A stretch of 64,000 nucleotides of DNA from Mytilus galloprovincialis. Its lineage: Eukaryota; Mollusca; Bivalvia; Mytilida; Mytilidae. How positions within the stretch are numbered: the first letter of the stretch is position 1; every line of letters starts with the position of its first letter. The notes beneath the pieces were generated by a model that worked only from the letters and a program-made list of their open reading frames with translations, was not told where the DNA came from and ran no database searches. This document shows positions 1,319 to 55,569 of this stretch, one piece after another. The DNA lies in the NCBI RefSeq assembly GCF_965363235.1, contig NC_134843.1, positions 44,649,035-44,713,034 of the forward strand, written 5' to 3'. Both the position numbers and the translations under genes were made by a program.

Positions 1319-4300
1319 CTTTATCTTATTTTTGAAAGCATCAGTCTTCCATGGAAATTCAAGTTCTTTTTGAAGTATCTGTCTATCAGTTTCCTTCATA
1401 AGATGAAATTGTGCAAAACCATTTCCTAAAACGAGTATTAAAATAATATCAAACATGTTTCTTTTATAATGAACTAGCTTCATTTATATTATACAGAATA
1501 TGATGTTGCATTTTGTTTTACATAAAAGCTATAACATCTTTTATATAATCAAGCAAATAAATTTCAATTGCAAAGCAATAGAGACATAACTGGGAAAATG
1601 TTGAAATAAGGAATTTTAGGCAGTTTAAAGAAATGGAAATAAAAAAAAAATTAGACGAACAGATCAAAAAGACATACCTTTTGTAGGCAGACATAAAAGA
1701 TAAATTGTGTGTCCCTTCTTCACAAACTATAACCATTCGGCTAAGAATGGATCGGAAAGTAATTCACATTTTTTCAAACAATATCTGACTAAAATTCACT
1801 ATTTATGTTCTTCTACTGGATAAACTTACTAATATCTGAGTTTGGACATTCTACATTTGTGAACTGTTGGTCCCAAATTTCTTGCTTCATTGTTCTAAGC
1901 TGTATAGTACAACTGTAGCCATATAAACCTGTATATATTCAATTTTTTTTTGTTACTCACACACATAAAATACAAAACAAAAGTTACAAATATCAATTGA
2001 AAAATGATAAAATCAAGCATGATTAAAACATCTAATTCTTCATCTAATTGAGACTTTAAGTGCCTGAATGGTTTAACTAACTACCCCATAGATATGAATT
2101 GTAACAAGAACTCAAAGTTAGAACAACTTTTAATAATATGTTTTTATACGGTATGAATTATTCATCTTATAATACTGCCCTTGAAACAAACATCATCTAC
2201 AGACCGTTGGGAATGTTGATTTTATGTGATTTTTTTCTACCTTCCTGGAACAAGCATATATTGACCCTGCTTTTCAAATTGTGTGCTGTCCTTTATTTCT
2301 GTGTTCAAATAATTGGGTATCCTGTTGGTAGCTTCACTGCATTTTTTAAAAATTATGGATTAAGAAAAAGCCTGCATATCTTTTGTAGACAGATATAAAA
2401 GATAATGAAATTCTGATAATTGTTTGCAGATGTGACCTTTTATGCTGGATGTCTTCTGTTTAATTTATTGTATGTAACAAAACACTTACATGACTGATTT
2501 ATTACACATTTCAAATTTCAACTCCTTTTTGTGAAAGAGTCTACACCAATAAGTACTACCATTATTTTTGTCTTCCTGAGATTAACTAAAAATTATTTCA
2601 AATATTTATGTTGGCAACATCAAACCTCCAATGACTCTCAACATTCAGGGGAATAAAACTATTTAACATACCATATGTAGACTCAGGTAAACAGGCAAGA
2701 CTTTTTTCCTTTGGTGACTGATACATCCTTTAATAGAAAGAAATCAACTGTTTATCAAACAAAATATATCTTCTTATGCTGCACTAATATTTATGACTAA
2801 ACAATAATTTGTAAAGGGTTCCACAGAAACCAGTGTCTCGCATGTGATTGCTGCAGTCAGTGAAAAAGTGTAATGCTGACCATAAAAACTTAAAAGTATG
2901 TAGATTCATCAGTAAAATGCAGAATTTGTATTTAAGGTGGATTCATGGTATACTGCCATCTTGGATTGTACAATCACAGTACACAATTGGTCTAGATCTT
3001 TGACCAATCTGCAAAATTGGAGACAAATTGGATAAGTTAGGCTGTTTATTCATAGAAAGAAAACATAGTGATTTATTGCATTATCCAAAATGTTTAAATA
3101 AATACCAAATATTTGTGTTTTTAGAAAAATAACACTGTGACCCATACTTTTTATTATATTTTTGGAAAAAGCATAGAAAAATCTTTATTTTGGCAAAGTA
3201 TAAAAAAAATCTATCTGAGAAAATATATACCTATGATCTACCTTAAATCAAAAACTCCTGCTTCATATGCTATTTTTTATATCTTAAAGATAAACTACTG
3301 TCAATGTTTCATAACAATCAATGAACATTAAAAATTAAATTTATTAAGTCATAAACATGTATTAATTCCAGATTGTCTGTTAATGTCATTTTAAAACTTA
3401 TTCCAGACATCTTTCAGTAAAATATTGAAAAAAAAACCAAAGTTTTGCTTCACACATTATCCTTTTACAAACTTTAACTGTATCTATAAAATCAATGTCA
3501 AAAAAATAAAATCTTAATAACATTGAAGTATAAATCAAATGGATGTTGAATGTGTAAAAAAACAACATTTACTAACTTTGATGATGTTCCCATGATACAT
3601 TTTTTCACCAAACCAGGAAGCCCAGCAGCTATTGCAATAAAAGCAATTTCTCCACCTTCCTAAAAAGAAAGATACTACATAAACTTCAGAAGTATGTTAT
3701 AAATTAAAGTCATTAATGAATTCCTAATATGGTTGTCACAAAAATAAATAAATATAATATATTTTAAGCATCTGTTTGATATGTAACATTATACATTTTA
3801 TACATTTTTCAACATACACATACAAGAGATAAATTTATTTTAGTGCCTAAATGCCTCTATAGTGCATTTTTGATGCTTTTATAAATGAGTAATGTGATAG
3901 ATTTATTTGTGGAGATAAAGAATAACTAGAATTGCCATTGCAAGCAATAGCAGATGTCACCCTTCCCCTATTGCCACTAAGCGGCAGCCATTTCAAAACA
4001 ATTTAATGGTGAATGCAGATCTATGCATTGCAATATATCTTGCTGTAAATTTTCAGTACATTTAGAGCATTGCCAAAAGTTTCACATTTCTGCTGTTTCC
4101 ATGGCAACGGCAGCCATTTTGAAAATTCCAAAGTCAAAAGTCTCATTTATACATGCCAGTTAACAATAATATTAAGTTTCATTAAGTTTGGAGCATTTTA
4201 AAAATATTTGACATTTTCCCAGTTTCCATGGCAACGGTGGCCATTTTGGAAATTCCAACTTCAAAAGTCTTATGCAGACTTGACAGTGAACAATCATATA

Positions 4301-20657: not shown

Positions 20658-23600
20658 GTGAGAATGGGCAAGTTGATGTTCTGGTACATAGTACAGACGT
20701 GTTCACATGTGGTATTTGTGAGCATAATGAAGAAAACCTTATAGATTTTTTAAAACACAAGATACAACGTAAGTAATAAGTATTAATATTGTTAAATGTT
20801 ATTTTGAGCTTTGCCTTAAGAGGTATTACATGTAGCTATGTTATATATGAGATATATGAAAATAAAGATTTATTTTTTTGTTCATTCATTAATGAAAGTC
20901 GTGAAAGTGAAATAGTGAATTTATAATGTTAAACAAGCTTTAAGCAGCCAGTTTGGTTCTATTTTATCAAACATTTCTGATGAACTTTTCACTTGCAAGT
21001 GAATATTTCAATCTCTTTAATCTGTATGCCTATGACCTAAGTCCTTCAATTAAACCCCTTAAGCTGGAGATGGATTATATATATATATATATATATAAGA
21101 AGATGTGGTATGAGTGCCAATGAGACAACTCTTCATCCAAGTCATAATTTGTAAAAGTAAACTATTATAGGTCAAAGTATGTTCTACAACAGATAGCACC
21201 TTGACTTAAACAGAACAGCAAACTATAAAGTGCCCCAAAAAAAGACTTGTGTAAAACCATTCAAACAGGAAAACCAACGGTCTAATCTAGATGAAAAACA
21301 AGAAACATTAATGAACCACATCAACAAATAACAACCACTGAACATCAGGTTCTTAACTTAGGACGGTGCAAACAAACACAGTGGGTTTAAACATACCAAC
21401 CTTCACCCTTACCTTGAACAATAGTGTAACATCACAACACTATAAAATATCAATTGAAATGGCTTAACTCAATCAAAAGACATATGAAAACAAACAAGTG
21501 GATATACACTGAATGGATGAATTTGATCTATGACACATGTATTCAGCTAAAAAAGGAAAAGAATGTTAACATTGAAAGTGAAACAAGGATGGACCATTTG
21601 GTTAACTGATTCTATCCATAAAACAATCAATCTTTATATACAGGTTAAAACATTGTTAAACATACTTTTAAACTTACAATATGAAATCAAACAGACCTAG
21701 AAAAATTCAATTGCATGTGACCGTTATCTTACATTTAGTATTTATATTTATCATGTTTATGTTTATATTGGGTTATATGACTGTCTGCAGGCCTCAGAGG
21801 TCAAAACATTTTATTGACGATGTACGTTATTGTATGACAAAGGGACTTTTTTCTTTTGTTTTAGATCAAGGACCAGGAAACTGCTATGTTTGTCAGCTAT
21901 GTAAGATTTCATATACTAAAGACTCCTCGCTCATTCAGCATTATAAAGTTAAACATAAAGTGTCATTGGTTCCAAGGAAAAAAAGGAGAAATAATTTTCA
22001 TGAGAAAGAAGATATTCAAGACATAACAAACATCATAGAGGAAAAAGGAAATGATTATGATCTTCAAATTGTAAATATGGAAAACCTTGATGTTGTCAGT
22101 TTATTAACCAGTGAAGGTTCTGACAACAGTAAATGTGACCCTAGTTATGAAAAAGACAGTAAAACAGATGGGCCTCAAACTGTTACACCTGATTGTGATA
22201 TTATTAATTATTGTGAAGAAATTCCTGCCTCAGTAACTGTTAACACAGCCATTGAAGATTCTTTGCCAATGGATCAAAGTGATGGGACAACAGAGATTGG
22301 ACATTTAGATCTAAAATCCGACAATGACTTGTCATTATCTTATACAGGACCAGTTGCTATCAAAGATAATCAGGAAATTGTGCAAACAAATTCATCACAT
22401 GAAGAAAACAGTGTTGTCACTTGCAATATTGAAATAATAAGCTTGGATGAACCCAATAATGATCTTTTTATTGATGATGACGAATCACAGGAAAGAAATT
22501 TAAAATATGAAAATGATGATAAAACAGATGAAAATGATTTCTTTTTTTGTGTGAAAACAAATTTAAATGCCGGAAAAACTATTATTTATGAAAGACAAAA
22601 TTTGTGCTGTATATATTGTAATTACCAAGATATGGTATTGGCAAACTTGTATCAACACATGTCTGATCAGCATTTAGATCACATGAATACCAAGGAAGAA
22701 CTCAAGCTGGAAAACACAAATGACAATATAAAGCTGATGAAGTTTTCTGAATATAAAAGGATTTGCTTAAAATATCACATGGGATCTAGCAGGAAGAACA
22801 GAAATACCGAAATGCAAGACCAAGCAGGAGAATTTCCCTGCAGTAAATGTGATAAAATATTTACTAGATTGCGTTATTTGAAAAAACATATCACCCTCCA
22901 TAAACCTGAAAAACCTTTTCTCTGTGATTTTTGTGGGAAATCGTTTAAAACTCAAACCTACCTTACTATACATCATCGCTCACATTCCAAGAAGTCGTAC
23001 GAATGTGAACAATGTGATTTCTCATCATCAAATACTGCCTTAATACATATACACAGGCAACAGCATAACAATGGGTGTGTTTTATGTGATATCTGTGGAA
23101 ATGCATACTCTGATAAATCAACCTTAACAAAACACAAACGTGTTCATGATCCTAATCGTCCATATCAGTGCAACTACCCAGGATGTACTTGGCGGTTTTT
23201 AACAGAAGTTATGTGCCGGGCACATCAAAGGAATCATGACACAGAAGGAAAATTTAAATGTTCCCATTGTGGTTATGTCTTTCGACACAAACATCATGTC
23301 AAAAGGCATGAAGCTCAAGTGCATGGTATTAAAAATCAACCTATTAAGATTGATGATAAAACAGATAGTGGATTAGAACCATCAAGTATGAACAACATAC
23401 AGAGTATTAATGAAGTCAAAAACACAAATGAATTGCAGGAAAAAGATACATCTACAGTTAACGTTATAGTAGAATCGACAGAAGAAAGCACTTGTTTACA
23501 GGAGTCTGTGTCTGGTGGTCAGTTAGTAATTACAACAGACACTGAAGGGAATGCCTTGAATTATCAACTCACAGAAATTTCCAATATAGCTTTAATGGAC

Positions 23601-23726
23601 TCCGGAGGAGGGAGAACAATTATTATTCCTCAAATTGACTATGGAAACGTTGTTTTGCAGAGGGTGGAAAATGCAGTTGGTGATTCACCCATGATTAAAG
23701 TTACAGAATTAAAAGAGAATATATGA
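20658..23726 (+). CDS. C2H2 zinc-finger protein, 3' two exons
   Basis: A probable nuclear DNA-binding transcription factor. Exon 20658-20768 (after ttttgacag, before gtaagt) reads ENGQVDVLVHSTDVFTCGIC.. and joins in phase to exon 21865-23726, which starts after tttgttttag and ends TGA. The large exon has eight C2H2 modules. One is at about 21.89 kb (CQLC..H..H) and one at about 22.61 kb (CIYC..H..H). Six are clustered at 22.83-23.33 kb, the seventh with C-x4-C spacing. Acidic, low-complexity stretches separate the first two and the cluster, and a 100-residue tail follows. The short exon, with its VLVHSTDVFTCGIC opening, resembles the ZFP64 N-terminus; orthology is not shown. The apparent start at 21,681 with a hydrophobic leader is intron read-through. 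The first exon was not found upstream of 20,658. Confidence 0.85.
21098..21540 (+). repeat. dispersed repeat, family R1 copy in a zinc-finger gene intron
   Basis: It begins 'agatgtggtatgagtgccaa' and continues with 'gagacaactct', 'aaaccattcaaacaggaaaacc' and 'accactgaacatcaggtt'. The closest copy in the window is 56.66-57.19 kb. An (AT)n tract (21,075-21,097) sits at its left edge. Confidence 0.75.
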
Positions 23727-26559: not shown

Positions 26560-27300
26560 CTGACCTTGACCTTATTTCATGTTTAAGTTTTTGATGTCAA
26601 GTCCACCTCCTATACTTCCAGCAATATTCTTCTGACCGTTTGGTCTCTTCTGGAGAGTTGTCTCATTGGCAATTATACCACATCTTTTTTTATATTGACC
26701 ACAATTTCATGATTCATTGGACAATTTTTTTTTCTGGTCTCTTTCTCATGATTTTATATATAGCAGAGGGATATTTTCATTTAGTGTATGGAACATTTGA
26801 TGTATGTTGAACATATCAAACTGACAGGTTTCATCTTACCTTGACTTCATTTTCATGGTTCATTGAAAGTTTTTGTAATTTGGGTTAGTTTTTAAATACT
26901 ACAGTATATGCTATAGGGCAACTTTAATTTGTTAATGGAATGATTGTAAGGTGTACACATCTGTCTGGCAGATTTCATAACCTTGAACTCATTTTCATGG
27001 TTTATAGGTCAATGTTAAGATCTTATAGTATTCAGTTCTTCAGATACTATAAACAATAGGTAAATTATATTTGGTGTATGGAATAATTGTTTGGTGTTTA
27101 TGTTTGATAGGCAGAGTTCATATCACCTTGACCTCATTTTCTTGGTTCATTGGTCAGTGATTCGTTTTCAGTGATTGTCAGTTTTTCAGATATAATAAGC
27201 AATGGGTAAACTATATTTGGTGTATGGAATGATTGAAAGGTGTAAATGTCACTGTCAGGGTTCATATGATCTCGACCACATTTTCACGGTTCATCATTTG
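26560..27300 (-). repeat. tandem-core array, type C, reverse orientation
   Basis: Units marked by 'ccttgacctcattttcatgg' or variants stand near 26,568, 26,850, 26,982, 27,127 and 27,267, that is 130-145 bp apart. Units also carry 'tttggtgtatggaatgattg'. This is the reverse complement of the array starting at 27.59 kb, so the two face each other. Confidence 0.7.
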
Positions 27301-27309
27301 TCGATGTTC

Positions 27310-27440
27310 AGAAAAAATATAAAGACAACAGTAGTATACCGCTGTTCAAAAGTCATAAATCGATTGAGAGAAAACCAATCCAGGTTACAAACTAAAACCG
27401 AGGGAAACAAATCAACTACAAGAGGAAAACAATGAAGGAA
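27310..27440 (+). repeat. dispersed repeat, family R3 copy
   Basis: It contains 'acaacagtagtataccgctg' and 'cgattgagagaaaaccaatc'. Other copies are at 61,535-61,660 and, reversed, at 63,200-63,235. Confidence 0.7.
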
Positions 27441-27465
27441 CAAAACAACATACACAGAAAACAAG

Positions 27466-28945
27466 AGTGCACACGCTGAAATGTCTCGCCTTCTATACTA
27501 ATCATTGATATTATGTTGATAGTCCTAAGTATAAAGCTTTATTACAACTGTCTCATAAACTTAACATTAACCAAGATAACTAAACAAAGACCAATGAACC
27601 ATGAAAATGAGGTCAAGGTCAGATGAACTATGCCAGGCAGACATGTACAGCTAACAATGCTTCTATACAACATATATATAGTTGACCTATTACTTATAGT
27701 TTAAGAAAAATAGACCAAAACACAAAAACTTAACACTGTGCAATGAACCGTGCAATTGAGGTCATGGTCAAAAGAAACCTGCACTACTGACAAAGATCAT
27801 AAAATATTTCCACACACCAAATATAGTTGACCTATGGCATATAGTATTAGATAAAAAGACCAAAACTCAAAAACTTAACTTTGACCACTGAACCATGAAA
27901 ATGAGGTCAAGGTCACATGACATCTGCCCGCTAGACATGTACACCTTACAATCATTCCATAAACAAATATAGTATAACCACTGAACCATGAAAATGAGGT
28001 CAAGGTCACATGACTTCTGCCCGCTAGACATGTACACCTTACAATCATTCCATACAACAAATATAGTAGACCTATTGCATATAGTATGAAAAAAACAGAC
28101 CAAAACACAAAAATTTAACTATAACCACTGAACCATGAAAATGAGGTCAAGGTCACATGACATCTGCCCTCTAGACATGTACACCTTACAATCATTCCAT
28201 ACAACAAATATAGTAGACCTATCGCATATAGTATGAAAAAAACAGACCAAAACACAAAAATTTAACTATAACCACTGAACCATGAAAATGAGGTCAAGGT
28301 CAGATGACACCTGCCAGTTGGACATGTACACCTTACAGTCCTTTGATACACCGAATATACTAGCCCTATTACTTATAGTATCTGAGATATGGACTTGACC
28401 ACCAAAACTTAACCTTGTTCACTGATCCATGAAATGAGGTCGAGGTCAAGTAAAAACTGTCTGACAGACATGAGGAACTCAGTCTGCACCAAAATTTTTT
28501 TCAACTACTAGTCCGAAGACCAATATTCTGACATTTTTCTTATTGGGCCAAACAAAATTTGGCAAAAACTTACAAGTCCGAATGAAATTTTACTAGTCTG
28601 GGGCATCGGACTAGTGACTAACCGTGCATACTGGGACCTTGCAAGGTATGCACATATTAAATATATTTATCCTATTAATTATAATAAGAGAGAATTCAAC
28701 ATTACAAAAAAATTGAACTTTTTTTTCAAGTGGTCACTGAACCATGAAAATGAGGTCAAGGACATTGGACATGTGACTGACGGAAACTTCATAACATGAG
28801 GCATCTATATACAAAGTATGAAGCATCCAGGTCTTCCACCTTCTAAAATATAAAGCTTTTAAGAAGTAAGCTAACGCCGCCGCTGCCACCGGATCACTAT
28901 CCCTATGTCAAGCTTTCTGCAACAAAAGTTGCAGGCTCGACAAAA
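27466..28945 (+). repeat. tandem-core element, type C, 146-147-bp units
   Basis: It opens with 'gagtgcacacgctgaaatgt'. Units marked by 'ccatgaaaatgaggtcaagg' start near 27,599, 27,745, 27,892, 27,986, 28,132, 28,279, 28,428 and 28,741. The usual spacing is 146-147 bp; one unit is short (94 bp). The right end has a small hairpin, GCAACaaaaGTTGC (28,919-28,932), followed by aggctcgac. Apparent open frames here are by-products of the repeat. Confidence 0.85.
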
Positions 28946-34300: not shown

Positions 34301-37300
34301 TTGGTCATGTTGACTTCTTTTCAGGTTTTACTTTGCTGTACATTATTGCTGTTTACAGTTTATCTCTATCTATAATAATATTCAAGATAATAACCAAAAA
34401 CAGCAAAATGTCCTTAAAATTACCAATTCAGGGGCAGCAACCCATCAAAGGGTTGTCCGATTGGTCTGTAAATTTCAGGGCAGATAGATCTTGACCTGAT
34501 TAACAATTTTACACATGTCAGATTTGCTCTAAATGCTTTGGTTTTTGAGTTATAACCCAAAAACTGCACTTTACCCCTTTGTTCTATTTTAGCCGTGGCA
34601 GCCATCTTGGTTGGAAGACCGAGTCACTGGACACATTTTTTTTTAACTAAATACCCCAAAGACGATTGTGGCCAAGTTTGGATTAATTTGGCCCAGTAGT
34701 TTCAGAGGAGAAGATTTTTGTAAAAGATTACTAAGATTTACGAAACATGGTTAAAAATTGACTATAAAGGGCAATAACTCCTAAAGGGGTCAACTGACCA
34801 TTTCGGTCAGGTTGACTTATTTGTAAATCTTACTTTGCTGAACATTATTGCTGTTTACAGTTTATCTCTATCTATAATAATGTTCAAGATAATAACCAAA
34901 AACAGCAAAATGTCCTTAAAATTACCAATTCAGGGGCAGCAACCCAACAAAGGGTTGTCCGATTCATCTGAAAATTTCAGGGCAGATAGATCTTGACCTG
35001 ATAAACAATTTTACACCATGTCAGATTTGCTCTAAATGCTTTGGTTTTTGAGTTAAAACCCAAAAACTGCATTTTACCCCTTTGTTTAATTTTAGCCGTG
35101 GCGGCCATCTTGGTTGGAAGACAGAGTCAACGGACACATTTTTTTAACTAGATACCCCAAAGATGATTGTGGCCAAGTTTGGATTAATTTGGCCCAGTAG
35201 TTTCAGAGGAAAAGATTTTTGTCAAAGATTACTAAGATTTACGAAACATGGTTAAAAATTGAATATAAAGGGCAATAACTCCTAAAGGGGTCAACTGACC
35301 ATTTCGGTCATGTTGACTTATTTGTAAATCTTACTTTGCTGAACATTATTGCTGTTTACAGTTTATCTCTATCTATAATAATGTTCAAGATAATAACCAA
35401 AAACAGCAAAATTTCCTTAAAATTACCAATTCAGGGGCAGCAACCCAACAACAGGTTGTCCGATTCATCTGAAAATTTCAGGGCAGATAGATCTTGACCT
35501 GATCAACAATATTACCTCTATCAGATTTGCTCTAAATGCTTTGGTTTTTGAGTTATAAGCAAAAAACTGCATTTTACCCCTATGTTCTATTTTTAGCCAT
35601 GGCGGCCATCTTGGTTGGTTGGCCGGGTCACTGGACACATTTTTTAAACTAGATACCCCAATGATGATTGTGGCCAAGTTTGGTTTAATTTGGCCCAGCA
35701 GTTTCAGACGAGAAGATTTTTGTAAAAGTTAACGACGACGGACGCAAAGTGATGGGAAAAGCTCACTTGGCCCTTCGGGCCAGGTGAGCTAAAAAATGAA
35801 TGTCCCTCATAAGGGAGACAACTAAAGAAGGGATCTCTTATTACAGGGTCAATTACGGGATTTGGACTATTATGAATGTAACAATAACATGTGTGTCTAT
35901 AGTTACCTTGTGTTATATATTGTTCATGTTATCATTGTTACATTATGTTGTAGACCTGGAGATATTAAGATAGTCTGCTAGTTAAGTTAAGGAAGATCTT
36001 CTTTGGCTCAATCAATTGGTTAGAGCGCTGACTTTAGATCCTGAGGTAGCAATACACAGTTAGAAGTTTAGTTTCGCATTATGGCCCCTGTGAATTTTTT
36101 AAATCTGAAAGTTTTTGTACAATAAAATTGATTTTTAGATAATTGAAGAAAAATATAGCCTTCTTAGTGGGTTTATATGAACATTAAGATTGTTTTTAAC
36201 ATGTTTTATAGGCCATTTATATGATTGACAGTCCGTATTTTCCTATCCGTACCGTTCATAGGTCCATACATTATTGTAGTGTTTATCAACAAAGATTTTG
36301 CGCTCGATCTTTTCAATTCAATTTTATGGAAAAACGAGCAGATAAGCATATGATTTTTTTGGGACCACTTGATAGATATAAACCTATGGATTCAGGAAAG
36401 GTATTACTGTAATTGATTGAAATTTTCCTTTAGACCAAATTTTGGAGACTTTTGTGACATGTTCACCCCCCTTTTTTGCTATATTTTGTATCTAAGAAAT
36501 GCAGATTGTTGCCATGGTTACACCCAAGAGGGATTATATTTCACCCTTATGACCATTAGAAATGAAATCTATGGAAGATTCTCTTTCTATAAGTATATAC
36601 ATGCATAACACACATATAAAGCCTGAAGGGGAAAGAGGGTGTTTAAAAATTATGAGTGTCAATTTTAAGTTTTTTTCCTAACTGTGTATTGCTACATTTG
36701 TACCTTATGGCATTTGACAAAGCAAAGAATTGCTTTTTTTAAGACAAATCATACCACAAATCTATTGATAACTAGGTTATAGATACAATTCTGAGGGAGA
36801 AACAACCTTTAGAATGACAATATATGTTAGTTTTGTTGTTTATTGTCCTTAGCAACCAATATAGACATTTTGACAAAAAGACTTGGTTCCGTCATAAATT
36901 GAAACTTTATTGGCTACCCCTTGGAAAAGAAGATTGCGCGTTATGTAGAAACCTTAGAAGGGAACGCTTTATATTTTTTCATGCGACTAAATCAAATTTA
37001 TTATTTTAGCAAGTATAAAGTCACAATTTAGCATGAATTAAGCCTAAATTTTTTCCCGCTATTATAAATGAATTCAGTATTTACTAAATTTTAACCAAGG
37101 CTTTGGTATGGTAATACACAACAAAATTGACATTCTAGAGCTTTAAAATAGCTTAAACTTGTAAAATTTGTCTACTGTTAAGGTTAATTTAAGTTTTTAA
37201 ACAAGAAAAGACAGGCTTAGAAGGTATAGTTTTAGAAATTTGACTAAAAAAGGAGAAAATGCACTTTGACATGGCATGTTTCATAAAATCACTTTTTTGT

Positions 37301-40300
37301 TGCATTTCAGTGTCAACTGCTAACCTTCATAAAATATTTATTTCTGAACCGATTTTCAAAACTAGCAGGCCAATTTGCTCGTTTTAGCTAGTAGAAAACA
37401 GAAATCCATTTAAAGTGGAATTGGGAAAAAAAATGTTAATCCTTAAGGTAGCAATACACAGTTAGAAGTTTAGTTTCGCATTATGGCCCCTGTGAATTTT
37501 TTAAATATGAAAGTTTTTGTACAATAAAATTGATTTTTAGATAATTGAAGAATAATATAGCCTTCTTAGTGGGTTTATATGAACATTAAGATTGTTTTTA
37601 ACATGTTTTATAGGCCATTTATATGATTGACAGTCCGTATTTTCCTATCCGTACCGTTCATAGGTCCATACATTATTGTAGTGTTTATCAACAAAGATTT
37701 TGCGCTCGATCTTTTCAATTCAATTTTATGGAAAAACGAGCAGATAAGCATATGATTTTTTTGGGACCACTTAATAGATATAAACCTATGGATTCAGGAA
37801 AGGTATTACTGTAATTGATTGAAATTTTCCTTTAGACCAAATTTTGGAGACTTTTGTGACATGTTCACCCCCCTTTTTTGCTATATTTTGTATCTAAGAA
37901 ATGCAGATTGTTGCCATGGTTACACCCAAGAGGGATTATATTTCACCCTTATGACCATTAGAAATGAAATCTATGGAAGATTCTCTTTCTATAAGTATAT
38001 ACATTCATAACACACATATAAAGCCTGAAGGGGAAAGAGGGTGTTTAAAAATTATGAGTGTCAATTTTAAGTTTTTTTCCTAACTGTGTATTGCTACATT
38101 TGTACCTTATGGCATTTGACAAAGCAAAGAATTGCTTTTTTTAAGACAAATCATACCACAAATCTATTGATAACTAGGTTATAGATACAATTCTGAGGGA
38201 GAAACAACCTTTAGAATGACAATATATGTTAGTTTTGTTGTTTATTGTCCTTAGCAACCAATATAGACATTTTGACAAAAAGACTTGGTTCCGTCATAAA
38301 TTGAAACTTTATTGGCTACCCCTTGGAAAAGAAGATTGCGCGTTATGTAGAAACCTTAGAAGGGAACGCTTTATATTTTTTCATGCGACTAAATCAAATT
38401 TATTATTTTAGCAAGTATAAAGTCACAATTTAGCATGAATTAAGCCTAAATTTTTTCCCGCTATTATAAATGAATTCAGTATTTACTAAATTTTAACCAA
38501 GGCTTTGGTATGGTAATACACAACAAAATTGACATTCTAGAGCTTTAAAATAGCTTAAACTTGTAAAATTTGTCTACTGTTAAGGTTAATTTAAGTTTTT
38601 AAACAAGAAAAGACAGGCTTAGAAGGTATAGTTTTAGAAATTTGACTAAAAAAGGAGAAAATGCACTTTGACATGGCATGTTTCATAAAATCACTTTTTT
38701 GTTGCATTTCAGTGTCAACTGCTAACCTTCATAAAATATTTATTTCTGAACCGATTTTCAAAACTAGCAGGCCAATTTGCTCGTTTTAGCTAGTAGAAAA
38801 CAGAAATCCATTTAAAGTGGAATTGGGAAAAAAAATGTTAATCCTTAAGGTAGCAATACACAGTTAGAAGTTTAGTTTCGCATTATGGCCCCTGTGAATT
38901 TTTTAAATATGAAAGTTTTTGTACAATAAAATTGATTTTTAGATAATTGAAGAATAATATAGCCTTCTTAGTGGGTTTATATGAACATTAAGATTGTTTT
39001 TAACATGTTTTATAGGCCATTTATATGATTGACAGTCCGTATTTTCCTATCCGTACCGTTCATAGGTCCATACATTATTGTAGTGTTTATCAACAAAGAT
39101 TTTGCGCTCGATCTTTTCAATTCAATTTTATGGAAAAACGAGCAGATAAGCATATGATTTTTTTGGGACCACTTGATAGATATAAACCTATGGATTCAGG
39201 AAAGGTATTACTGTAATTGATTGAAATTTTCCTTTAGACCAAATTTTGGAGACTTTTGTGACATGTTCACCCCCCTTTTTTGCTATATTTTGTATCTAAG
39301 AAATGCAGATTGTTGCCATGGTTACACCCAAGAGGGATTATATTTCACCCTTATGACCATTAGAAATGAAATCTATGGAAGATTCTCTTTCTATAAGTAT
39401 ATACATGCATAACACACATATAAAGCCTTCTTTGTAAGACTGAAGGGGAAAGAGGGTGTTTAAAAATTATGAGTGTCAATTTTAAGTTTTTTTCCTAACT
39501 GTGTATTGCTACCTGAGATAGAGGGGTCGAATCCCACTGGTACCATCCATGGATTTTCACAACAGGCGCTGGGAGCATCTGCTACTGGTACAAAAATTGT
39601 ATATAGAATATGGCCTGGCAGTGAGATGTTAGAATTGGTCATGAGGTTTGACCAGCCGGTCATACATGTAGGATAACCATGGCAATTCTAGGTGGCATCT
39701 AAGGAACTGGCCAGAGGATTTCCGAGTAGAAGTCTTGAGGTTGTACAGTAGTGGACCTGTGAGTTGGTCGGATGGATGGATGGTACGCAGCCCGAAAAAA
39801 GAAAAGGGGGAAGAGTGTTGTAGACCTTGAGATATAGGGGTAGTCTAACTAGTTGAGTTAGGGAAGATCTTCTTTGGCTCAATTGGTTAGAGAGCTGCCT
39901 TTAGATCTCGAGATATAGGGGTCAAATCCCGTTGGAACCATCCATGGACTTTCAAAAAACAGTTAGATTTATTAAACTTTTACCTACTATGGTTTAACAT
40001 TATATTTAATGACAAGACAAAAATTCATCATATGTTTATCCATAAAAATTGGGACAAAAAATATTTATTTCAAGAATAAAATTCACCAGAAGCATGGCAC
40101 TGACAGGCATCATGGACATTGAAAGTTGCTAGCCTATAACTTCAAAGGGGATATATTATATTGCAGAGTGTTTTGTCTACAAAACTAACGTGCACGTTAC
40201 AATACAGCATCACTCGTCTGTGAATTGAAATGCAAATGAAAATAATTCACTCAAAAGTTATATGTAAAAAATAAGCGATTATGAACCTGGATGATGAAAA

Positions 40301-41063: not shown

Positions 41064-44000
41064 ATGAGAATGGATTGTGTCGTTTTTCCAGATATTTACA
41101 GAATTACTTCTGTTGCACACAGAACGTGAGTTATATTTTATTGAAAATGTTTCGCAATTATGTATAACTTTATTGCGTTGTCACTCTATCTACGCTTTCC
41201 CTTTTTAAAGTTCCATATCAAAATACTTATTTCTGTGACTACAACACCGATCCTTTAAGATATAGTTTTTAAATAATAAGCAACAAATTCATCTCAATGC
41301 ATAAAATATAATGTACTGTGTAACAACTCTAGATTATAATGAAATGAATAGGTAACACTAGGCCACCGAAAGCTAAACTCTTAATTCAGTCTAGGTGGCG
41401 GAAAGTCTAGAGTGCTAGCCACAATGCAGACGGTGTTGTCACAATATCCCAGTAGCATGTGTTCCCGACGAAGATAGAACAAACATTTGCTTTAGTAAAT
41501 TTGCAGATTTAATAGTGTTGTACTAATATTTAGATTAGGACATATTTACAACATAAAGCAAGTAAGTTCATTAGATTAACTGATGTCAAGAATTGTTTTT
41601 TTTTTCTCCAGAATTGACGTATTCGCTACAATTAGCGAAACCCTTGAGGTTAACTTAAATTCGGAAACTGCAGATTTCCCCGATCAACAAATACACAGCA
41701 TCACGAAGAAACTGATGGCATACAGACAAAATATGGGTAAGACTACATGAAGATTAAAATTAAAAAATCTATACCAGTAGAATGGATTCAAGTTGTCCAA
41801 AAAGAGAATTCTGTCAAAACTACAGTTAATATTCAGAGAAATAAAATCATATGGAAAAATAATTTAACCCAGACTACATCATTAACAAATAAAATGTTAT
41901 ATAACTTTTTGATAAGTATAAAACTAGAGTCGTCAATAGGGATAAACAGATGGCTTAGAATCCTACCAATACAAGAAACTCTTAATATGAATACATTGTA
42001 CAAATTTATTTTTGAATATATGACTGAAAATAAATTAAAAATATTTAGATGGAAATTATTACATTATATTGTTCCAACTAAAAAACTGTTATTGCAGTGG
42101 AAAGTAACTAAGACAGATAAGTGTAATTTTTGTAGGCAAGAAGAAGATTATGCTCACTATTTTCTGAGGTGTAGATATTTGAATAAATTTTGGCAAAAAA
42201 TCTATGAACTCTTTAAAAGAAGTAAAATAGATTTTGATATTAAATTGCAACATCTGGTATTTTGGATATAAAATTACAGAAAGTAAATATTATTTTTGAA
42301 TTATATACTAACAGTATTAAGTTTTTCTATTTATAAGTCATACTATGTATCCGAGCAGAGAACAAAAACTGTTGATGTCTTTAGTATTTTTGAAAATGAA
42401 TTTAATAAAAGAATAGATGCATATAAGTCAAGATGTCCAATGTTATTGTTAATTAGAAAGAATTTTTAGCATTGATAAATCTCTGCATAAGACAACTATA
42501 CATCCTTTAACAGGGCAAATCAAGAGAAGCTTGGACTCTTGGTGAAATTTGTAACAAGCAAGATTAGATGAATAGATATTATTATGTTGTTAAAAAAAAA
42601 GACTATATGAAGATCTATAGGCGAATAATATATATTTCGATATAAATAACATACATGTATTACAAAACTTGGAGAATCTTTCTTAGACATGAACTTCAAC
42701 GCCTGTGAACCCAATAGAGTACATAACACCGTTCTGCAGTGTTCGTTGTTTCTTTATTGTTCTACGATCTTAAATGATAAGTTTTTTTGTTATGATTTGA
42801 TATGAAAAAAATCAGAAAGCCACAAGAAACGGTTAAACATAACTTGCAATTATATTTTAGATATTAAATTTGCTAGCACATTCACATGAGAGTGACGTAG
42901 ATTATTTTCTTTTTTTTCACCCAGAATTTCCTGAAATAAACAAGTTGTTTAATCTACTGACTGGAATGGTGTTGGGTGTTGTTGGAGCACACGAAACAGC
43001 TTGCGAGAGTTATAAGAAGTCATTTACTGAAAGAATCCAGAACAAAATCGTCAAACTGGTTTCATCATCTGACAGCATTCTTCCAATTCCAACGTAAGTT
43101 GTTTGATTTTAAAATAGATTGTATATTTTGTTTTGCTGTACATTTTCATGTCAAAAAGCGATTCATTAACACGAAAAGCATCGATTTGTAAAATGCTCTT
43201 TCCTTAAACTCAAAACAAACTCGATAACTTTTTATCAACGATCGGCCTGCTGGCAAAAGACTAGCGTATATCCAAACTATACAGTACACCATATTGGTAG
43301 CTTTTATGTATTCAAAACGTAAAGTGATGAAGGCTTGCGTGTCTCCGAAATATAAAGTAATGGTGTCAATATACTTGTGTTAATACACTTAAAGCTTTAC
43401 AGACAAGCAGCTAATAAATCGTAACAGTGGAATTCTATACATTTTTCAGATTTGATCAAATAAAAACCAGTGAATACTATGTCAAGGTCGATGAAATGAA
43501 CAAACTGCTGAGAACACATACATATATTTACAAAGAACTTCAGCGACAACAAGAGGTAATATTTTACAGCAAAAGACACGCGTGTGATAATAAAATAACA
43601 TTTTTCACAAATCGGTGGTTCAATTTTATTATTTGTTCAAGATGTATATTTTATTTTTTTTTTAGTTTCGAGATAAATTTTTGCACCGGTAACATATAAT
43701 GCATTGGTTTTTAACGGTCAACGAAGCATATATTTTTCTCCAAACTCCAATACTATCAAAAACAAGAAACAAAGTACCGATTTTATATTATTTGCAGTTA
43801 TCGAAAGCTATTATTCACAGCCAATAGTTTCAAAGACTAAATTTTCATTCAGCCCTAATCGAAAAGACTCCATGCATTAACAGTCAAAGAGCACCATGAC
43901 GCCATTGGGAAAGCTATATATGGACATTTTCTCTCTTATCTTTAATGTTAGCACATGTAGATCTGTTTTTTAGCTAGCACTAAGAAAATTAAGTCTGTTA

Positions 44001-53257: not shown

Positions 53258-53801
53258 TTTTTCACTTAAATCTGGAAATACCGATTTAAAAAAAGAGATG
53301 AATTGTAATCATCATAAATCATTAGCAATATAAGATTAACAAAAAGGGAACGATAGATAAGTCTTTGAATAACAATTTTGGTTTAAATGCTTCTAAATAA
53401 CAATTGTTGACCAATTACAGCCTCCTTTGTTATGATCTTAATATTTATAATCACAATGGAAAAACTATCGACAGTCATCCTTTCCCGTAATTTAAAAATT
53501 TACTTTCTTTTTTCCGATTACCTGTGCTTCAAAACCCGAAGTTTTGTTTGTTCCTCAATATAACTCGTGTCAGTTGTAATTTACCTAATGGGCGACAGTT
53601 AAACAATACAGGAGAAGCAGTTTCAGAGCTCATATTGTATGATCTGTTATTTTGTAGTTGAAGCACAAAATTTGTAATATTTCTAAAAGATTTAGACGAA
53701 TTGTTTCACGAGGAAGGGCATTTGAAAAATGTTCTTTAAAATTTTCTTGTTTTATTTCTTATTTAAACACAAAAAAAGTTTATTATTTTTCTTTATTTCA
53801 G

Positions 53802-55569
53802 ACGCAAATGTACCGGGAAGATGTCAACCCCTCAAACATGCTTTCAACATTCTTCAGAAGAAATCAGATTCTTTTGCGAAGAATGTCATGTCTTTGTTTG
53901 TGATGACTGTGTTTCAGGACAAGGAAAACATATAAGATGTAAAAAAATTAAACTACGTGAATATGGTAATAAGAACAAAAATTGTTTGATTGGAAGTGTT
54001 GAAGAAATTACCAGTAAAAAACTTCCACATATTAAAAGAACGTTGGAACTAGCCAAAAATGTTAAAGGATCTTTTAACAAATCAATGGATGAAAACATTG
54101 CAGATGTTCGATCAAAAACACAAATGATAAAGACAATTATTGATGAACTACAGAAGGAAAATATACGAGCGTTAGAAGAATCTAGACTAAAAGGAAACAT
54201 GAAATTTGATGAATTTATAAATTATCATCAAAAACGATATAGTGAACTAACACACATAACAGAAGAAATTCAACAACAGAAATCGGACATACTGCCATCT
54301 GATGTTGTAAAATACGACTTCGAACTGAAAAAAAATTTGAATATAGAACACGATTCGGAAACCATACCGAAACTCGAACCATCTTGTTTTGAGATAGCTC
54401 AGCAGTACTTAGAGAAAGAATTTTATCAGGATATTTTTCTGTGCAAGCATATTCCGGAAGATGAGAAAACAGAATCGTGTGCACATGGAATGGAGAAAGA
54501 AGAACGAAGCTCTTCCCCATATTATCTAGAACCGGTTTCACATGCAAAAGAAACTAATTCAGATTTTACGGTGAATGAAAAAATAACAACTAAAAACTTC
54601 GAAGAAAACTCCAGTGACATTTATGTTTCAAAATCAACTGTTACAGGGGCTTCAGCAAGTTATAATAAAGAATTAAGCTACACGATCATTAAACAGTTTG
54701 AATGTAAAAAATCTATAACTTTCATTGTACCTAAGACGAATGTTTACGAGGCTTGGGTTATCGGAATGGATATCAGCGAGATAAATTTAAAACAACAAGA
54801 ACCAAAATTCACCACTCTCGTTCCACATATAGATGGAGAACCAATTACAGCTGGAAAATGTAAAAAGCATGGTTTACTTATAGGTCTTAGAAACAGAAAG
54901 TCAACCAAATTACTTCAAGAGATGACTGGAACTCAAAGAAGAACTTCGGTCATGAACAAATTGGTTTCTCATATACCTGCACATTATCAGAATTTGTCAG
55001 CTATTTGTACCGTATCAACCCAAGAGAAAAACAAAGATATCGCGTTATTACTACGTGACTACCAGTTGCCAGGAAGTAAAGAAAAGGGAGCAGTAATTCA
55101 ATGGTTTTCTGACAAAAAATCAAAAACGAATGAGCTAAAGATTTCCAACAATATTGAAATAGAAAACCCAGTATACATGGACGAGTATACAAACGGTAAC
55201 ATTTGTATTACATGTGCGCCAGACGATAAATCGTCGTGGATACAGCTTCTTGACAAACAAGGGAATCACAAGATGAGATATCCACCAAAAGATGAAAAAT
55301 CGTTTGAAGATAACATTGTATATTCATTTATTGGTGCAGGATTTCTGAGAGATGGCCGCATTACAATTTTGGATCGAGTTTGCTTTCGTCAGCATCTTTT
55401 AGATGACAATGGACAGCTTATCAAAATAGATCAATACCAAAATCAACCATCATCCTTTGCTGTTGATATACACGACAATATCTGGATCGGATTTGACGAC
55501 GGAACAGTTCAAGTCATGGAATATAAGGACGCGGACGGATGGTACGAGGACGTTGAAACTAAGGGTTAA
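53802..55569 (+). CDS. TRIM-like B-box / coiled-coil / propeller protein without RING
   Basis: The 582-residue frame starts at 53,821. An acceptor (ctttatttcag) ends at 53,801, so the exon runs from 53,802 with an upstream, probably non-coding exon. Residues 7-40 form a B-box zinc site: C7, H10, C19, C22, C27, C30, H37, with C40 where most B-boxes have His. Residues about 55-170 are Lys/Glu-rich coiled coil. After an acidic linker, residues about 285-575 have the short beta-strand rhythm and GFLRDGRITILD / DIHDNIWIGFDDG repeats of NHL-type propellers. The whole frame is one exon, typical of the large bivalve TRIM-like families often linked to innate immunity. Lacking RING, it is unlikely to be a ubiquitin ligase alone. 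The role is inferred from family only. Confidence 0.88.

What the first reader, a model, noticed from the sequence alone, without database searches (positions are those of the whole stretch)
36045..39513. Recently amplified composite transposon A-B-A-B-A with one outer target duplication
Three copies of a TIR unit (A) alternate with two copies of a 751-bp segment (B) at an exact 1402-bp period, and only the outermost ends carry the TGA duplication. One reading is that two A elements moved as one composite carrying B between them, after which the A-B unit expanded. The last A has a private 13-bp insertion, so it is not simply a copy of the others. I know of no described bivalve family with this layout.
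Basis: partly seen in the sequence, partly recalled or inferred. Interest (0 to 1): 0.75.

Follow-up and report, generated by a model that had tools for sequence, protein, structure and literature searches.

The report
Tandem KolobokP-like DNA transposon
This is a non-coding member of a known kind of animal DNA transposon (KolobokP) that is built like a sandwich of long repeats and often grows into tandem arrays; the layout is already described, but this copy shows signs of having grown in place, and its inner joints look like the cutting site of a known nuclease.

Summary
A (651/651/665 bp, own 18-19 bp inverted ends GGTAGC...GCTACC) alternates with B (742 bp plus a local 8-bp insert), and one TGA target duplication lies only at the outer ends, inside a tRNA-like SINE. 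The novelty claim fails. LTDR-INT-LTDR elements with ~660-bp LTDRs, RR/YY ends, short TIRs, 3-4 bp TSDs, solo LTDRs and (LTDR-INT)n-LTDR multimers are KolobokP, described in 2022 and rich in bivalves (PMC9587614). The element is best read as a non-autonomous KolobokP dimer. In this genome the family has about 2,460 A, 1,500 A-B junctions and 1,500 B, two subfamilies with the same layout (A ~73% identical), and matching outer TSDs in 14 of 14 A-B-A and 8 of 8 loci with 2-7 units. The 'private 13-bp insertion' is ancestral; A1 and A2 instead share a deletion and an 8-bp insert found nowhere else in the assembly, so the A-B unit was most likely duplicated in place. New, unproven: both LTDR/INT junctions resemble the I-PpoI site (TTAA|GGTAGC), and INT-INT joints keep one 4-bp overhang, which suggests that the KolobokP nuclease cuts there.

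The parts
35946..36044 (+). 5' part of the host tRNA-like SINE, interrupted by the element; last three bases TGA are the left TSD
   Evidence: joined flanks align to the SINE copy at 39816-39957, 84% over 146 columns; 'tRNA-like' is read from box-like motifs, no tool call
36042..36044 (.). left target-site duplication TGA
36045..36695 (+). A1 = left long terminal direct repeat (LTDR); lacks the 13 bp
36696..36703 (+). 8-bp insert at the A1/B1 junction, splitting the terminal CC of A1
   Evidence: junction with insert occurs 2 times in the genome, both in this element
36705..37446 (+). B1 = internal region (INT), 742 bp; its one ORF of 60 aa or more has no Pfam match
37443..37452 (+). TTAA|GGTAGC at the B1/A2 junction, like the core of the I-PpoI homing site
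   Evidence: best of all 15-mer positions in the unit, 11 of 15; site sequence from PMC6294500
37447..38097 (+). A2 = middle LTDR; shares the 13-bp deletion and the 8-bp insert with A1
38098..38105 (+). second copy of the 8-bp insert, A2/B2 junction
38107..38848 (+). B2 = second INT, identical to B1
38845..38854 (+). second TTAA|GGTAGC, B2/A3 junction
   Evidence: sequence; the scan covered the first unit only
38849..39513 (+). A3 = right LTDR, full 665-bp form
39428..39440 (+). the 13 bp that A1 and A2 have lost (exact placing ambiguous by a few bases)
   Evidence: bases present in 26 of 26 other same-subfamily A rows aligned
39514..39516 (.). right target-site duplication TGA
39517..39562 (+). 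3' part of the interrupted SINE

Best explanation
The element is a non-autonomous KolobokP-type DNA transposon: A is its long terminal direct repeat (LTDR) with its own inverted ends, B its short non-coding internal region (INT). A transposase supplied in trans, presumably by an autonomous KolobokP of the same genome (inferred), inserted an LTDR-INT-LTDR unit into a SINE and duplicated TGA. At this locus the left LTDR then lost 13 bp and gained 8 bp at its right end, and homologous exchange between LTDRs (unequal crossover, or repair of a break from the wrong LTDR) duplicated the marked LTDR-INT unit, giving A1-B1-A2-B2-A3. Shown here: anatomy, outer TSD, family-wide layout, and uniqueness of the marks to this locus in the assembly. 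Inferred: the source of transposase, the order of events, and crossover as against a circle-mediated route.
For: Anatomy fits PMC9587614 point by point: LTDR 665 bp (class '~660'), ends GG/CC, TIR 18-19 bp, 3-bp TSD, solo LTDRs, multimers, INT-INT joints missing 4 bp. Outer 3-bp TSDs: solo 12 of 14, A-B-A 14 of 14, 2-7 units 8 of 8, arrays of 12 and 32 units 0 of 2; 34 of 38 overall against a shuffled mean of 7.1, maximum 16 in 10,000. The 13-bp deletion and the 8-bp insert each occur exactly twice in 1.385 Gb (up to 2 mismatches), in A1 and A2 only; B1=B2. In the tree, the A copies group by locus in 8 of 9 loci with two or more A (L056/L057 as one; L004 weakly, 86/77; L005-L008 left out). Nearest relatives found for units of L050 and L058 are loci with 1 to 6 units at 97-99% identity, none as close as the sister units in the same locus (only 7 of 1827 and 10 of 1985 candidates scored). 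The genome has 150 scored matches (of 224 candidates) to the His-Me endonuclease family PF05551, against none in 14 control genomes; many stand in arrays spaced about 4,071-4,075 or 4,651-4,656 bp, others about 2,020 or 2,203 bp.
Against: No transposase was tied to this family: the only LTDR read from beside a nuclease array (L122) ends GGTTGC...GCAACC, is 460 bp and shares only short stretches with A (best 17 bp, E 0.007). No search with a Kolobok transposase was made. The two large arrays tested lack matching TSDs. The A1/A2 pair of L043 is not a sister pair. The two A1-only substitutions fit a crossover inside A2, but also two later mutations in A1. A donor with the same marks that has since been lost, or lies in unassembled sequence, cannot be excluded. 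Assembly collapse or expansion was not checked with reads.
Confidence: 0.83

Rival explanations
1. Still a KolobokP element, but the whole five-part array was made before insertion (copied through an LTDR-INT circle or taken from a tandem donor array) and inserted as such.
For: Units within a locus are nearly identical and differ between loci. Loci with 2 to 7 units carry clean outer TSDs (8 of 8). Large arrays exist that could be donors, and arrays of 2, 3 and 6 units are among the nearest relatives of L050 and L058.
Against: The marks of A1 and A2 exist nowhere else in the assembly and A3 lacks them, so a homogeneous circle alone cannot be the template. No locus as close as the sister units surfaced for L050 or L058, though few candidates were scored.
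Confidence: 0.12
2. A-B-A is a chance composite: two copies of an ordinary 650-bp MITE (PIF/Harbinger-like, 3-bp TSD) that trapped host DNA B and became mobile as a pair.
For: A occurs alone with its own TSD (12 of 14 solo loci). 19 of 34 matched TSDs are TAA or TTA. Inner A copies are flanked by TAA and TTA, as if from two separate insertions.
Against: Two subfamilies at ~73% identity share identical junctions. B counts nearly equal A-B junction counts. Length class, ends and microdeletions match KolobokP.
Confidence: 0.06
3. It is a small LTR retrotransposon (TRIM) in which A is the LTR, with solo LTRs and tandem copies as in Wukong.
For: Same overall forms: LTR-int-LTR, solo LTR, tandem LTR-int arrays (PMC4528315 passages). 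A copies mostly group by locus, as LTRs would.
Against: Ends are GG...CC with 18-19 bp inverted repeats, not TG...CA, and the TSD is 3 bp. A primer-binding site was not tested.
Confidence: 0.02
4. The tandem copies are an assembly artefact.
For: No reads were available.
Against: The copies differ at diagnostic sites, and the same forms recur at many loci with separate flanks and TSDs.
Confidence: 0.03

Closest known systems
KolobokP DNA transposons (Kojima & Bao 2022, Mob DNA 13:24, PMC9587614; seen: abstract, Results parts 1-2 of 3, Discussion, and found passages; Results part 3 and the supplements not read)
   Same: LTDR-INT-LTDR with LTDR ~660 bp, own TIR, RR/YY ends, TSD of 3-4 bp, solo LTDRs, (LTDR-INT)n-LTDR multimers, INT-INT joints missing 3-4 bp; the oyster's non-autonomous families are 1.7-3.3 kb (A-B-A here is about 2.07 kb); rich in bivalves, Mytilus included.
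   Different: No transposase or nuclease in this family's INT, and its autonomous partner was not found. One array here has 32 A-B units; the parts of the paper that I read mention none of that length. Identity with any of its 228 families could not be tested.
Bacterial composite transposons and IS26-type pseudo-composites (as discussed in PMC9587614)
   Same: Two direct mobile ends around a segment, moving together or alone.
   Different: The ends carry no transposase gene; eukaryotic; the layout is inherited over long divergence.
Wukong TRIM elements of maize (PMC4528315, abstract and passages)
   Same: Terminal direct repeats, solo repeats, tandem arrays ascribed to unequal crossing over.
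   Different: LTR retrotransposon, not a TIR element.
Coral CMITE tandem arrays (PMC2872659, abstract and section list only)
   Same: MITE-type elements in tandem.
   Different: Linked to piggyBac-like transposons; an A-B-A layout is not mentioned in the abstract.

Membership tests
[quoted passage not shown]
   same layout at 14 single-unit loci and at arrays
KolobokP | LTDR length ~450 or ~660 bp | tested here: met
   A = 665 bp full form, about 663 bp in subfamily 2
KolobokP | LTDR has its own short TIR (11-18 bp), ends 5'-RR...YY-3' | tested here: met
   GGTAGCAATACACAGTTAG, 18-19 bp, GG...CC
KolobokP | TSD of 3-4 or 4-5 bp outside the whole unit | tested here: met
   3 bp at 34 of 38 loci; the 4 misses are two solo A and two arrays of 12 and 32 units
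KolobokP | solo LTDRs and (LTDR-INT)n-LTDR multimers | tested here: met
KolobokP | INT-INT joints with 3-4 bp microdeletion | tested here: met
   one 4-mer kept in 23 of 23 and 12 of 16 joints; the other 4 are one array with another footprint; the patterns demand intact flanks, so larger losses are not seen
KolobokP | Kolobok DDD/E transposase in INT, or in an autonomous relative with the same ends | tested here: inconclusive
   three ORFs of A1 and B1 without Pfam match; autonomous partner with these ends not found; no search with a transposase profile
KolobokP | I-PpoI-like His-Me nuclease encoded by autonomous members | tested here: inconclusive
   PF05551: 150 scored matches in this genome, 0 in 14 control genomes, but none linked to this family's ends
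LTR retrotransposon / TRIM | LTRs ending TG...CA, no other terminal inverted repeat | tested here: not met
   GG...CC with 18-19 bp TIR; criterion as stated in PMC9587614
PIF/Harbinger MITE | 3-bp TWA target duplication (criterion recalled) | tested here: inconclusive
   19 of 34 matched TSDs are TAA or TTA, the rest ATA 4, TGA 3, TTT 2, TCA 2, TGT, AAA, TAT, CTT 1 each
Kolobok superfamily, classical | TTAA 4-bp TSD | tested here: not met
   3-bp TSDs of varied sequence; KolobokP itself departs from TTAA

The most novel reading that the evidence does not exclude
The LTDR/INT junctions of this family are the homing sites of the I-PpoI-like nuclease that autonomous KolobokP elements encode. Both junctions carry the half-site GGTAGC next to TTAA or ATAA, as in the rDNA site CTCTCTTAA|GGTAGC. 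Cutting at one junction would start LTDR-to-LTDR repair and add or remove LTDR-INT units. Cutting at both and joining the two 4-nt 3' overhangs (TTAA and TTAT) would remove an LTDR and leave INT-INT joints with exactly one 4-mer, as found in 35 of 39 joints and in both subfamilies. The element would then grow and shrink by its own nuclease, not only by its transposase.
Probability: 0.3. Interest if true: 0.7.

Novelty: new member of a known kind. Interest (0 to 1): 0.42.

Why it matters
As a transposon it is ordinary for its kind. Two things are useful. First, the dimer carries two marks unique to its locus, which makes it a good case for multimer growth in place, one of the routes that Kojima and Bao propose. 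Second, their paper suggests that the KolobokP nuclease may cut inside the LTDR or at its ends, but the parts that I read name no site. The junctions found here give a specific, testable candidate: a sequence very like the well-studied I-PpoI rDNA site. If right, it would explain multimers, solo repeats and missing repeats with one enzyme, and would link a ribosomal-intron nuclease to satellite-like array growth in animal genomes.

Tried and rejected
Autonomous partner by ends: a pattern for the same 19-bp end followed by C or T at base 22 (neither end of A has that) gave 41 hits; the inverted pairs among them are only 681-696 bp apart (C2:62.27, C4:18.14, C5:17.52), so no long element. It would miss a partner with A or G at that base. 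One LTDR beside a nuclease array was read (L122) and is another, 460-bp family. Coding content: the three ORFs of 60 aa or more lying within A1 and B1 have no Pfam match up to E 1. Rfam on 34-41 kb at gathering thresholds: nothing. The idea that B-B is the older state, a B satellite into which A jumped, cannot be excluded by sequence alone; the KolobokP description makes LTDR loss more likely.

Rows left out of the TSD count: L040, L042, L044, L047 (fragments), L054 (one end missing), L055 (duplicate of L053), L005-L008 (right end truncated), L061/L103 and L100/L101 (array ends not both read), and six candidate composites whose fetched edge windows missed one or both ends (C1:70.68, 87.35, 88.27, 26.75, 30.21, 25.94). 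The loci come from the first listed or best matches, not at random. One search used a start one base off for L003 and L004 and so showed 12 of 14; one search repeats it with the right start. The array at C1:95.67 Mb is labelled 36 units in the scripts; a recount of the list gives 32 exact A-B junctions.

Paper searches: layouts in general, 'KolobokP' (one paper), the I-PpoI site string, I-PpoI site papers (listing only, then passages of PMC3943268). In PMC9587614 the string GGTAGC occurs 0 times in the main text; its supplements were not open to me, so I cannot say the site is unreported there.
Full report
What is there. At 36045-39513 three copies of A alternate with two of B in direct order, start to start 1402 bp. 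A begins GGTAGCAATACACAGTTAG and ends with its reverse complement; in the window this 19-mer (up to 3 mismatches) is found six times, all here, against 0.01 expected in shuffles. TGA stands at both outer ends and at no inner end. Joining the flanks at one TGA restores a tRNA-like SINE that aligns at 84% with a second copy 300 bp downstream, so the whole five-part block sits in one insertion site.

All 26 other A rows of the same subfamily that I aligned have bases where the last A has its 13 bp (the tally covered 18 of them; rows of L005-L008 come from one array and partly overlap). A1 and A2 have lost them. A1 and A2 also share an 8-bp insert at the junction with B. Searched over 1.385 Gb with up to two mismatches, the deletion and the insert each occur twice, only in A1 and A2 of this element. 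B1 and B2 are identical. The simplest history is that an A-B-A insertion acquired both marks in its left A and that the marked A-B unit was then duplicated at the spot. A1 has two private substitutions in its first 107 bases where A2 agrees with A3, while further right A2 agrees with A1; this is what a crossover between the left and right A would leave, but two later mutations in A1 would look the same. A marked donor that was lost or not assembled is not excluded.

The family. The assembly has 4,926 ends (19-mer, up to 2 mismatches; reversed control 7), so about 2,460 A if each has two; 1,497 A-to-B junctions (18-mer, up to 2 mismatches; control 19); and 1,500 copies of a B core (24-mer, up to 3 mismatches; control 0). 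Loci show A alone, A-B-A, and (AB)nA with n from 2 to 7, 12 and 32; another array at C1:108.43 Mb was not followed to its end. There are two subfamilies with the same junctions, about 73% identical in A and 68% in B, so the layout is old. In the loci tabulated a matching 3-bp duplication lies outside the whole block in 12 of 14 solo A, 14 of 14 A-B-A, 8 of 8 blocks of 2-7 units (one of them with B-B joints) and 0 of 2 larger arrays (12 and 32 units); in all 34 of 38, against 7.1 on shuffling the right flanks (maximum 16 in 10,000). The A copies of one locus group together in a tree in 8 of 9 loci, L004 with weak support and L043 not at all.

What it is. A DNA transposon with long terminal direct repeats that carry their own short inverted ends, solo repeats, tandem multimers and missing repeats is KolobokP, described by Kojima and Bao in 2022 from seven animal phyla and especially bivalves, Mytilus among them (PMC9587614; abstract, Results parts 1-2 of 3 and Discussion read). 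Length class (~660), RR/YY ends, TIR length, TSD length, size of non-autonomous families and the 3-4 bp microdeletion at INT-INT joints all fit. The genome has 150 scored matches (of 224 candidates) to the I-PpoI-type nuclease family PF05551, against none in 14 control genomes; many stand in arrays spaced about 4,071-4,075 or 4,651-4,656 bp, as autonomous multimers might, and others about 2,020 or 2,203 bp. One repeat read beside such an array is 460 bp long with TATA|GGTTGC...GCAACC|TATA at its ends, the other published length class.

A possible nuclease site. In both subfamilies B ends in TTAA directly before GGTAGC of A. Of the inner B-to-A junctions found in the fetched loci by a pattern that demands GGTAGCAA (or GGTAGAAA), 34 of 34 read TTAA|GGTAGC; the pattern fixes the right half, so only TTAA was free to vary, and many of the 34 are units of the same arrays. 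The A-to-B junction reads GCTACC|TTATGG in 37 of 40 (2 of the other 3 are the window's own insert copies). The I-PpoI site is CTCTCTTAAGGTAGC (PMC6294500, passage) and is cut to leave 4-base 3' TTAA overhangs (PMC9587614). Scanning one A-B unit of each of five loci with the 15-mer, the B-to-A junction scores 11 or 12 of 15 and is the best or joint best position in all five; the A-to-B junction scores 11 in four, the window being the exception because of its insert. A best score of 11 or more anywhere arises in 36 of 200 shuffles, so the score alone is weak. The point is the place: at a fixed position 11 or more has probability 9e-5, and the 10-base core TTAAGGTAGC 1e-6. The idea arose after seeing the sequence, so these numbers are a guide only.

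Joints without A fit the same idea. In subfamily 1, 23 of 23 joints read AATCC-TTAT-GGCATTT; in subfamily 2, 12 of 16 read ACTA-TTAT-GGCATAC, and the other four are one array with TTTGA. By my grouping they fall into 7 and 7 places. Exactly one 4-mer is kept, as if TTAA and TTAT overhangs were joined. The search patterns demanded intact B tips with up to 20 bases between, so larger losses would not be seen. Deletion between the TTA repeats that flank A, or transposase excision with repair, gives the same product, so this is consistent and not proof.

Against the nuclease reading: the one nuclease-side family read has TATA|GGTTGC, which shares 7 of 10 bases with TTAAGGTAGC; and in the array at C6:49.42 Mb all but the first A lack their first 50 bases, so their TTAA|GGTAGC joint is gone and yet the units multiplied, though their other joint remains. 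The published paper already suggests that abutted repeat ends could form a symmetric target and that the nuclease may cut inside or at the ends of the LTDR; GGTAGC does not occur in its main text.

Verdict. The dimer is a good case of growth in place, and the junction motif is a worthwhile, testable lead on what the KolobokP nuclease does.

Noticed in passing
L060 1369-7285 (C1:95.71 Mb): About 5.9 kb of other DNA is inserted into the next-to-last A of the 32-unit array; about 10 bases of A (412-421) are repeated on both sides, like a 10-bp target duplication.
   Followed up: no
L005-L008 (C6:49.42-49.43 Mb): An array of six A-B units in which all but the first A lack their first 50 bases (period about 1354): the left inverted ends are gone but the unit still multiplied.
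   Followed up: partly
C3:64.26 Mb (L100, L101): A higher-order array in which A is followed by four B units (joint spacings 742, 742, 2151 bp).
   Followed up: partly
C7:20.15 Mb and C8:78.14 Mb (L062, L063): Two arrays with the same 10,587-bp spacing between B-B joints, 44 differences in 2,964 bases; shared descent or coincidence not settled.
   Followed up: partly
C10:72.89-72.94 Mb, C1:63.79-63.81 Mb, C61, C11:77.88-77.91 Mb: Tandem arrays of endonuclease-bearing units (PF05551), probably autonomous KolobokP multimers of several families.
   Followed up: partly
L122 558-574 and position 460-476 of a subfamily-2 A: A short stretch around TTGTTGCCATGG shared between the repeat of another KolobokP family and a conserved inner part of A; E 0.007, weak.
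   Followed up: no
window 21672-23726 (+): Open frame (stop to stop) of 684 codons with C2H2 zinc fingers (Pfam), probably a host gene.
   Followed up: partly
window 53767-55569 (+): Open frame (stop to stop) of 600 codons with a B-box zinc finger (Pfam), probably a host gene.
   Followed up: partly
window 41741-42271 (+): Fragment with the zinc-binding domain of reverse transcriptase (zf-RVT), a retroelement remnant.
   Followed up: partly
window 26935-28381: Tandem repeats of 93, 146-147 and 387 bp, partly overlapping.
   Followed up: no
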